DNA from: a virus
Strand: one strand, 5' to 3'
Length of the DNA stretch: 38,298 bases
IMG/VR virus record: IMGVR_UViG_3300041407_000068
Coordinates: 1-38,298 of that record
The translations under genes and the position numbers were made by a program. Positions 33,563-35,641 of this stretch are shown piece after piece (positions within the stretch are counted from its first letter, which is position 1; each line of letters begins with the position of its first letter). The notes beneath the pieces are model-generated. The model was not told the DNA's origin and searched no databases. It was given only the letters and a program-made list of their open reading frames with translations.

Positions 33563-33789
33563 GATGTGTGACCTGCTGCTGTCGTTCGCCGCAAGTGCGC
33601 TCCCTCCTGGAGGCCCTACCTTCTGCGGCACGGGCGGTTGCCCGGTCCATGTAAGTATGGGTTGTATGCGCGATCAAGCAAGCGACACTGACGGACGGCA
33701 ATCACAAGAAAACTAATTAGTCGTTGATCACAAAACGTAAGAAGCATACGATGTGCCGGCACACACTTATGAACCATCCAGGGGAAGAT
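33563..33789. promoter_or_regulatory. Divergent control region
   Basis: This 227-bp gap lies between divergent genes. It holds a plus-strand promoter (33724-33752) and a weaker minus-strand candidate near 33648-33676 (TTGCTT, 18 bp, TACTTA). GCATAC occurs in each direction next to both (in GCATACAAC leftward and GCATACGAT rightward) and may mark operators. An A/T-rich patch lies around 33708-33722. Confidence 0.45.
33724..33752 (+). promoter_or_regulatory. Rightward early promoter
   Basis: TTGATC, 17-bp spacer, TACGAT. It lies 37 bp upstream of the XRE gene's ATG and directs transcription to the replication genes. Four matches in each box; the fit is fair. Confidence 0.55.
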
Positions 33790-33990
33790 ATGAATATTGG
33801 AAAATCTCTGAAGATTGCCTTGCTACAAAACGACATGGAGCAGGCTGATCTTGCGAATCGGATGGGAATACATCAGTCGAACATCAGTCGTATCGCCTGC
33901 TGCAAAACGATTACCACCGAAACACTTGAGCGGATTGCAGCCGCCTTCAATATGAAGGTCAGTGAATTTGTTGCGATCGGTGAGGACTGA
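33790..33990 (+). CDS. XRE-family small helix-turn-helix regulator (Cro-like position)
   Basis: A 66-residue protein with a clear lambda-type HTH: EQADLANRMGIHQSNISRIA (about residues 19-38) followed by the conserved end TTETLERIAAAFNMKVSEFV. It is the first gene of the rightward operon and lacks any C-terminal cleavage or dimer domain, so its size and place fit a Cro-like repressor or early regulator rather than a CI repressor. AGGGGAAGAT precedes the ATG, which is why upstream in-frame starts are rejected. Confidence 0.82.
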   Translation: MNIGKSLKIALLQNDMEQADLANRMGIHQSNISRIACCKTITTETLERIAAAFNMKVSEFVAIGED

Positions 33991-33993
33991 GAA

Positions 33994-34902
33994 ATGGCCC
34001 GGGCGCGCAACATAAAGCCCGCTCTTTTCAAGAACGAGATTCTTGGGGTGGCAGATCCGATCTACACGCTTCTGTTTTCAGGGTTGTGGCTTCTTGCTGA
34101 CCGCGAAGGACGGTTAGAAGATCGGCCTTTGAGAATCAAGGCTGAGTTATTTCCGTACCGTGACGGCATGGATATGCCAGCCATGCTCGGATGGCTTCAC
34201 GATTCTGGATTTATTTATCGGTACTCGTACGGAGAAAATCGGTACATAGAGATCGCGAATTTCACGAAACATCAAAACCCACACAAGAATGAGGCGGCCT
34301 CAGAAATTCCTTCTGTATCAATAGGATGTATCAGTACCGATAAAATCGGAACGAATACCGATAAAATCGGAAGCGCTCCGGCTGATTCCCTCTCTCTTGA
34401 TCTTCTGATTCCTGATTCCCTCTCTCTTGATTCCCTTAACACTGATTCAAAAACCTTGACGAGCGCTGTCGCTCCGTCGCCGGCCAAAAAACCAAGGAAG
34501 CCGAAAGATCTAGAGGCTGAAGCGGCGAAGGAGATAAACCGGGAGACATGGCGGGCGTATGCCGATTCGTATTTCAACCGATACGGGGCTGAGCCGGTTC
34601 GCAACGCCAAGTCGAACGCATTGGTGGCCCAGCTAGTTCAGCGCCTTGGTGCTGAAGAGGCGCCCGATGTCGCGTTTTACTACGTGACGATCAACGATGC
34701 GTTTTATCTGCGGACGCTGCACGACCTTGGCAACTTGGTGGCCAAGTGCGAATCAATTCGAACGCAATGGGCTACTGGCCGCCAGATGACCGGGACAACC
34801 GCTAGGCAGATGGAAAACACTCAATCCAACATGACCGCCGCCGAAGAGGCTAAGCGGATGCTGAGAGAAGGAGGGACACAAAATGCTTTCCTCGCACGAT
34901 AA
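33994..34902 (+). CDS. Phage replication initiator (O-like)
   Basis: A 302-residue protein. The N-terminal 100 residues (ARNIKPALFKNEILGVADPI, then GLWLLADREGRLEDRPLRIK, and FIYRYSYGENRYIEIANFTKHQ) are the winged-helix part found in many phage initiators and replisome organisers. Residues about 108-165 are a repetitive, hydrophilic linker coded by tandem DNA repeats. The C-terminal part (WRAYADSYFNRYGAEPVRNA to TRWATGR-like helices) resembles the DnaT/helicase-loading half. An in-gene origin and the following loader gene support the call. It begins 3 nt after the XRE stop. Confidence 0.75.
   Translation: MARARNIKPALFKNEILGVADPIYTLLFSGLWLLADREGRLEDRPLRIKAELFPYRDGMDMPAMLGWLHDSGFIYRYSYGENRYIEIANFTKHQNPHKNEAASEIPSVSIGCISTDKIGTNTDKIGSAPADSLSLDLLIPDSLSLDSLNTDSKTLTSAVAPSPAKKPRKPKDLEAEAAKEINRETWRAYADSYFNRYGAEPVRNAKSNALVAQLVQRLGAEEAPDVAFYYVTINDAFYLRTLHDLGNLVAKCESIRTQWATGRQMTGTTARQMENTQSNMTAAEEAKRMLREGGTQNAFLAR
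34335..34431 (+). repeat. Candidate replication origin: iterons inside initiator gene
   Basis: Two copies of TACCGATAAAATCGGAA at 34335-34351 and 34356-34372, with 21-bp period (two helical turns); each has an inner palindrome CCGAT-AAA-ATCGG. They are followed by two 19-bp copies of TGATTCCCTCTCTCTTGAT (34383-34401 and 34413-34431), then A/T-richer DNA. In lambda the origin iterons are also inside the initiator gene. Confidence 0.65.
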
Positions 34903-35641
34903 GAGCCAGCTGATCGATGCGCTTTGCGTGACGGCCGAAGCCATGGGCAATGTGATTACAGCGTCGACCGCGATGATGATGGCCGATGACTTGGCTGATT
35001 ACTCGCTTCCAGAGCTGGGGCGCGCGCTGCGGGCCTGCCGCCGTGAGGTGAAGGGTCGGCTGTCGGTCGCCGATGTTATTCAGCGCTGCCAGGCAGAGGA
35101 TGGGCGGCTGGCCAAGGATGAGGCATGGGCCGAGGGGCTTGAGTCGTCTGACGAATACGGAACAGCGGTCATGACCTGGGAGATTCAGCAGGCCATGGCC
35201 GTCGCCAAAGTGATCATGGATGAGGGCGATCAGGTCGGCGCGCGCATGGCGTTCATGTCCGCCTACGAGCGACTTGTAAGGGAAAGTCGGCAGATCAACC
35301 GGCCGGTTGAGTGGATCGTTTCGCTGGGCTTCGACAAAGAGCGCCGAGTTACTGCGGTTGAAAAGGCGGTCCAGTTGAAACGAATCCCGCGAGAGAAGGC
35401 GGATCTTTATCTGAAAGGCCTGTGCCTGGAAGCTCCTGGCAAAACCAGTCAAGCAATCGCAGGCCTGATCACCGGGAAGGTCGTCAAGCCGAAGGAGGAG
35501 GATCGCAAGAAGTTCGCAAGCTTGAAGGAAATGGTTAAGCATCGCGCCGAGGAACTGGCAGCCATGACGCCTGAAGAAAAAGCGGCCGAACGTGAGCGTG
35601 AACTTCACGAACACAACAAAATCATCAAGGGTATCGACTGA
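34883..35641 (+). CDS. Probable helicase loader / replication protein (P-like)
   Basis: A 252-residue protein that starts inside the end of the initiator gene. The N terminus (QLIDALCVTAEAMGNVITAS, DDLADYSLPELGRALRACRR) has the pattern of proteins placed in the lambda P position in Pseudomonas phages. The middle has VARMAFMSAYERLVRESRQ-like helices and the C terminus is a charged helix (LAAMTPEEKAAERERELHEH). No Walker A is seen, so it is not an AAA+ loader; a lambda-P-type adaptor is more likely. AGGAGGGACACAAA precedes the ATG. Confidence 0.65.
   Translation: MLSSHDKSQLIDALCVTAEAMGNVITASTAMMMADDLADYSLPELGRALRACRREVKGRLSVADVIQRCQAEDGRLAKDEAWAEGLESSDEYGTAVMTWEIQQAMAVAKVIMDEGDQVGARMAFMSAYERLVRESRQINRPVEWIVSLGFDKERRVTAVEKAVQLKRIPREKADLYLKGLCLEAPGKTSQAIAGLITGKVVKPKEEDRKKFASLKEMVKHRAEELAAMTPEEKAAERERELHEHNKIIKGID

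What the first reader, a model, noticed from the sequence alone, without database searches (positions are those of the whole stretch)
34335..34440. Likely replication origin inside the initiator gene
Two palindromic 17-bp repeats at exactly 21-bp spacing, followed by two 19-bp repeats of another kind, code the linker of the initiator protein. This is the same logic as the lambda O iterons, with different sequences.
Basis: partly seen in the sequence, partly recalled or inferred. Interest (0 to 1): 0.65.

Follow-up and report, generated by a model that had tools for sequence, protein, structure and literature searches.

The report
Phage replication origin inside initiator gene
The repeats are almost certainly the place where this phage starts copying its DNA: two initiator-binding sites plus a second repeat array that related phages keep in the same form, either inside the initiator gene or, in some relatives, moved out into non-coding DNA.

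Summary
TACCGATAAAATCGGAA occurs twice, exactly 21 bp apart, then a TGATTCC array (an exact 20-mer twice; better, five units 15 bp apart). All of it encodes the predicted-disordered linker between a winged-helix N-domain and a helical C-domain of a phage replication initiator. Comparative evidence makes a replication origin by far the best reading. Synonymous divergence among relatives falls from about 0.9 to 0.1-0.26 of expectation just over the repeats. The 15-mer CTGATTCCTGATTCC marks initiators of this family (62 of 80 contigs in-gene, 5 more near one). Decisively, in relatives whose initiator lacks the repeats (for example L042-L050) the same palindromes, 21-bp spacing, spacer and TGATTCC array lie about 2.3 kb away in non-coding DNA; of 67 loci fetched by protein 54 have it in-gene, 9 outside (8 clearly intergenic), none both. 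Palindromes change with the N-domain; the TGATTCC array does not. It works like lambda ori/O, but neither protein is detectably homologous to lambda O or P, and the array replaces lambda's AT-rich tract. No binding or replication was tested. New variant of a known kind.

The parts
33994..34902 (+). Initiator gene: winged-helix N-domain (aa 9-95), disordered linker (about aa 110-160) encoded by the origin, helical C-domain (aa 170-292)
   Evidence: phrog_16167 replication initiation protein E=1.4e-45; AlphaFold2 model, pLDDT >90 for most of both domains and <50 in the linker; Foldseek matches to winged-helix DNA-binding proteins, weak E-values but prob up to 0.99
34335..34351 (+). Iteron 1, TACCGATAAAATCGGAA, palindromic core CCGATAAAATCGG
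34356..34372 (+). Iteron 2, identical 17-mer, 21 bp from iteron 1; the 21-bp register is kept without gaps in close relatives, in-gene and intergenic
34372..34382 (+). Conserved spacer AGCGCTCCGGC between iteron 2 and the TGATTCC array (AGCGCTC[C/G]GGC; ACCGCTC in a few), also kept in the non-coding copies
34383..34449 (+). TGATTCC array: units at 34383, 34398 (degenerate), 34413, 34428, 34443 (TGATTCA) every 15 bp, plus 34406; G-poor top strand; candidate unwinding / single-strand element
34300..34430 (.). Stretch of strongest synonymous-site constraint within the initiator gene (aa 103-145)
34883..35641 (+). Putative helicase loader or loader-like partner (P0002, phrog_6028, unknown function), overlapping the initiator 3' end
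   Evidence: follows initiators with this C-domain in 10 of 10 scorable cases, across different N-domain types; no PDB fold match; loader role inferred from position

Best explanation
The segment from about 34335 to 34449 is the phage's replication origin, carried inside the initiator gene and read through as a flexible linker. Proposed mechanism: (1) the winged-helix N-domain of the 302-aa initiator binds the two palindromic 17-bp iterons, probably as dimers, on one face of the helix because they are two turns (21 bp) apart; (2) this strains or opens the adjacent, relatively unstable, G-poor TGATTCC array, which serves as the unwinding or single-strand-capture element; (3) the C-domain recruits the partner encoded by the next gene (P0002 here, a DnaC-like AAA+ protein or DnaB in relatives), which delivers the replicative helicase. 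Shown by sequence: DNA-level constraint, family-specific association, portability to non-coding DNA, coupling of iteron type to N-domain and of C-domain to downstream gene. Inferred: binding, melting, helicase loading.
For: Initiator family assignment and wHTH-linker-C-domain anatomy. Observed/expected synonymous divergence about 0.80-0.96 over most of the N-domain (0.71 at its very start) versus 0.10-0.26 over the repeats in 45 unique relatives. Iterons, 21-bp spacing and spacer align without gaps between in-gene and non-coding copies. Non-coding copies with stops in all frames about 2.3 kb upstream of initiators that lack the repeats; in-gene or outside but never both (54 / 9 / 0, with 4 having neither); 29 of 31 initiators found near (TGATTCC)3 arrays contain no TGATTCC; outside-type initiators have linkers of 35-37 aa against a median of 67 aa. 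In a pair of related phages the iteron zone and the initiator N-domain diverge together, 2.3 kb apart, while array, C-domain and loader are conserved. 80-mers starting at 34286-34381 rank about 15th-17th least stable of 7644 in the window. C-domain type goes with downstream gene type.
Against: No binding, footprint, melting or plasmid-replication data exist. The window has only two iterons (lambda has four) and in most Pseudomonas relatives the palindromes are degenerate (TACCGATTTTGGCGGAA ... GCCATTCTCGGAA). Low synonymous divergence could partly reflect recent recombination at the linker, where C-domains are swapped; the constraint also starts about 50-80 nt upstream of iteron 1. In the L232/L233 pair the flank upstream of the iterons is divergent too. 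The loader role of P0002 is positional only.
Confidence: 0.9

Rival explanations
1. Protein-level repeat: the linker peptide (TDKIG..., DSLSLD, LIPDS) is selected as protein, for example as a docking motif, and the DNA repeats follow from it.
For: In frame in every in-gene case; LIPDS-like peptides recur across hosts.
Against: The same DNA occurs in non-coding stretches with stops in all frames, on either strand; TGATTCC is read in two frames; synonymous sites are frozen; the linker is predicted disordered.
Confidence: 0.03
2. Operator: the 17-bp palindromes are binding sites of the adjacent Cro-like protein (33784-33990) or the phage repressor.
For: 17-bp palindromes two turns apart are typical of operators (general knowledge); a small HTH gene lies just upstream.
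Against: Homologues of that HTH protein are found only in the window record, L001/L209 (one contig) and L210, not in L002, L055, L042 and others that carry the sites; no further copy in the 38-kb record; in L045 the sites lie between two converging gene ends, away from the repressor promoter.
Confidence: 0.03
3. Recombination linker: the segment is conserved because it is a homology patch for exchange of N- and C-domains, with no replication role.
For: Several C-domain types are joined to the same N-domain and linker; mosaic breakpoints near the array.
Against: Does not explain palindromes at a fixed 21-bp spacing, conservation in non-coding DNA, in-gene-or-outside-but-never-both, or iteron type following the N-domain. 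Both roles may coexist.
Confidence: 0.03
4. RNA element: the palindromes act as mRNA hairpins controlling the initiator or loader message.
For: Each palindrome could fold as a 5-bp hairpin (from the sequence; not folded here).
Against: In the L118 group the element is on the opposite strand to the initiator and about 2.3-3.7 kb away; in L042-L049 it lies outside the initiator gene, between converging genes in the member examined (L045).
Confidence: 0.01

Closest known systems
Phage lambda ori / O protein (in-gene origin with iterons; also Stx phages)
   Same: Origin in the middle of the initiator gene; palindromic repeats of 17-18 bp about two turns apart (lambda iterons start 20, 24 and 23 bp apart); followed by an element for unwinding; partner gene immediately downstream. 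PMC7466680 cites that two iterons plus the AT-rich tract are the minimal unwinding unit.
   Different: No detectable homology of P0001 to O or P0002 to P; two iterons not four; a G-poor TGATTCC array instead of an AT-rich tract; the element can sit outside the gene; Foldseek finds only general winged-helix proteins.
Pseudomonas phage MD8 O-like gene (PMC8508860)
   Same: The paper notes repeats within the O-like gene and infers lambda-like replication.
   Different: Its repeat sequences were not compared here; the passages read describe no cross-family element or relocation.
Initiator families phrog_16167 / phrog_12556 / phrog_1408 (relatives include Pseudomonas F10 and JBD44, Escherichia HK639 and Louie, Hafnia yong1, Vibrio, Acinetobacter and Bordetella phages)
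   Same: Same N-domain (M-A-R-x-R-N-x-K-P start) and an in-gene TGATTCC-type array.
   Different: Different palindromic or direct repeats in the iteron position; different C-domains and loaders.
Iteron plasmid origins (Rep iterons plus unwinding element)
   Same: Direct repeats for an initiator next to a melting element (general knowledge).
   Different: Iterons there usually lie outside rep; initiators of a different family (general knowledge, not tested).

Membership tests
lambda-type in-gene phage origin (functional class) | Repeats lie inside the initiator gene between its N- and C-domains | tested here: met
lambda-type in-gene phage origin (functional class) | Palindromic iterons in register, about two helical turns apart | tested here: met
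   21 bp here versus 20/24/23 bp in lambda
lambda-type in-gene phage origin (functional class) | DNA-level (not protein-level) constraint on the repeats | tested here: met
lambda-type in-gene phage origin (functional class) | Adjacent AT-rich unwinding tract | tested here: inconclusive
   Region is among the least stable of the window but about 55-58% AT and dominated by TGATTCC units, not an A/T tract
lambda-type in-gene phage origin (functional class) | Initiator binds iterons; origin supports plasmid replication | not testable with these tools
   needs experiment
lambda O protein family | Sequence homology to O | tested here: not met
   BLASTP E=0.27; profile comparison probability 0.2%; no Pfam replication-O match
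lambda P helicase loader family | P0002 homologous to P | tested here: not met
   BLASTP E=0.52; no PDB fold match
phrog_16167 phage replication initiators | Significant profile match over the N-domain | tested here: met
   E=1.4e-45, residues 1-177

The most novel reading that the evidence does not exclude
The TGATTCC array is a distinct origin element, separate from the iterons, that acts in single-stranded or melting form and is read by a part of the initiator that hardly changes (for instance the near-invariant N-terminal arm) or by a conserved host factor. This would let the origin be swapped, moved or inverted relative to the gene while only the iterons track the N-domain. It would be a phage counterpart of bacterial unwinding motifs.
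Probability: 0.35. Interest if true: 0.72.

Novelty: new variant of a known kind. Interest (0 to 1): 0.58.

Why it matters
It turns a guess about one phage into a rule that predicts origins in many temperate phages of Pseudomonas, Escherichia, Hafnia, Vibrio, Acinetobacter and Bordetella and a Nitrosomonas relative, many of them annotated only as hypothetical proteins with low-complexity LIPDS linkers. It shows that such in-gene origins are portable DNA modules, and exposes a second, unexplained origin element that can be tested directly.

Tried and rejected
Minus-strand ATCGGTA pair at 34214-34244 (also 21 bp apart) looked like a mirror-image pair of half-sites, but it is kept only in L001 and L002 and coincides with conserved YRY/NRY codons, so it is set aside. 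Cro-operator reading rejected. Foldseek search with the P0002 model gave no meaningful match. Literature searches for the TGATTCC motif and for HK639 replication gave nothing relevant. A named isolate with the intergenic form was sought and not found in the phage collection. Codon counts inside the array are partly circular because the array defines the region, so they are not used as evidence.

Full report
Observation. The window holds an initiator-like ORF at 33994-34902 (302 aa). Within it TACCGATAAAATCGGAA stands at 34335-34351 and 34356-34372, and CTGATTCCCTCTCTCTTGAT at 34382-34401 and 34412-34431. The latter is one part of an array of TGATTCC-type units at 34383, 34398, 34413, 34428 and 34443, exactly 15 bp apart, plus 34406. 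The pair of palindromic repeats is unique in the window, absent from 20 shuffled windows, and unlikely under synonymous re-drawing of the same protein (1.3e-4).

Context. The protein matches phage replication-initiation families (phrog_16167, E 1.4e-45) and no Pfam family. AlphaFold2 gives a confident winged-helix N-domain (aa 9-95), a disordered linker (pLDDT <50 at 119-135 and 140-150) and a confident helical C-domain; Foldseek finds winged-helix DNA-binding proteins for the N-domain, at weak E-values. The repeats encode the disordered linker. The next gene, P0002 (phrog_6028), overlaps the initiator end; its homologues follow initiators of several unrelated N-domain types. Initiators with this C-domain are followed by P0002-like genes in 10 of 10 scorable cases, whereas those with an FWxxYPxK C-domain are mostly followed by DnaC-like AAA+ genes (23 of 32). 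That fits a C-domain that addresses the loader, but the loader role of P0002 is inferred.

DNA-level constraint. Among 45 unique relatives, fetched by protein similarity and kept if they carry the conserved linker motif, the ratio of observed to expected synonymous difference is 0.80-0.96 over most of the N-domain and falls to 0.10-0.26 over aa 103-145, window about 34300-34430. Recent recombination could lower this ratio, so it was not taken alone.

Natural experiment. Relatives L042-L050 (L044 excepted; N-domain about 72% identical) have initiators without repeats. In the same contigs, about 2.3 kb upstream (about 2.9 kb in L043), in DNA with stops in every frame, lies for example TACCGAGTTATTCGGTA...CCCGATAAAATCGGTACTACTCCCGATTTATTCGGTAGCGCTCGGGCTGATTCCTGATTCC.... 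In L045, the member whose genes were read, it lies between the converging ends of an upstream gene and the repressor gene. In-gene and non-coding versions align without gaps, with the same 21-bp spacing and the same AGCGCTC[C/G]GGC spacer. Among 67 loci (66 fetched by protein plus the window), 54 have the array in the gene, 9 only outside it, 0 both, 4 neither. Of the 4, L004 and L041 carry degenerate or TGACTCC versions, L014 has another N-domain and L053 has none; one of the 9 (L054) has it just past a truncated initiator ORF. A scan for (TGATTCC)3 found 54 contigs; 31 hold an initiator of this family in the fetched stretch and 29 of those initiators contain no TGATTCC. Several groups have the element on the strand opposite to the initiator. 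Outside-type initiators have linkers of 35-37 aa against a median of 67 aa. On the N-domain tree the outside label changes three times.

Two modules. Palindromes follow the N-domain: CCGATAAAATCGG here, CCGTTAAATAACGG in the Nitrosomonas relative L057, GCAC...GTGC types in L137 and the Escherichia phages, GGCCTAGG-N5-CCTAGGCC in the L118 group. Between L232 and L233 the iteron zone and the N-domain, 2.3 kb apart, are mostly 50-73% identical while the array is about 90% and the later C-domain and loader region 75-100%; the upstream flank is divergent too, so this is supportive, not proof. The TGATTCC array is shared across host genera: a 51-nt query hits mainly initiator genes of this family in the phage collection, and 62 of 80 contigs with CTGATTCCTGATTCC have it in-gene in an initiator of this family, with 5 more nearby. 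The unit is used in two reading frames in 71 of 73 genes. Initiators with other N-domains have other repeats in the same linker (L075, L076, L072, L087).

Mechanism and comparison. Best model: N-domain dimers on the two iterons, melting of the adjacent array, C-domain recruiting the loader partner and helicase. This is how lambda ori/O works, and a Pseudomonas phage with repeats in an O-like gene has been noted before (MD8). But P0001 and P0002 show no detectable homology to lambda O and P and the array differs from lambda's AT-rich tract. Hence: works like lambda ori, not a member of the lambda O family, a new variant of a known kind. What reads TGATTCC is open.

Noticed in passing
L075 and L076 (phages Medea1, phiAH14a), L072 and L087 (LPPA33, PotUPM1), L088, L073, L081: Initiators with unrelated N-domains carry their own repeats in the same linker position (for example CGGAAAAATATCCG palindromes, CACCCCCGCAGATGCTGCACCC), often followed by a second short repeat family containing GATACC or GAACC; suggests a general two-module plan.
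   Followed up: partly
L041:4300-4500: Nearly all copies of the array unit are changed together from TGATTCC to TGACTCC (one TGACTGC), as if homogenised.
   Followed up: no
L054 / L249: Initiator ORF ends at 128 aa and the iterons and TGATTCC array follow just after it; may be a split initiator or a sequencing error.
   Followed up: no
L042, L045, L048, L049 about 1560-1660: Non-coding origins carry an additional palindrome about 31 bp (three turns) upstream of the pair, absent from in-gene versions.
   Followed up: no
window 34250-34300 (aa 86-102): Reduced synonymous divergence starts about 50-80 nt before iteron 1, where no repeat is visible.
   Followed up: no
window 34214-34244: Two minus-strand TACCGATAAA/TACCGATTTT half-sites 21 bp apart, kept only in the closest relatives L001 and L002.
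   Followed up: yes
L268 (NZ_CP081694.1) and L267 (NZ_CP081787.1): E. coli records filed as plasmids (29.7 kb circular, 6.2 kb linear) carry a phage replication region with this array; could be autonomously replicating remnants or assembly products.
   Followed up: partly
plasmid NZ_CP011457.1 (Anabaena) 74403-74452: Weak TGATTCC-array match with no annotated gene under it.
   Followed up: no
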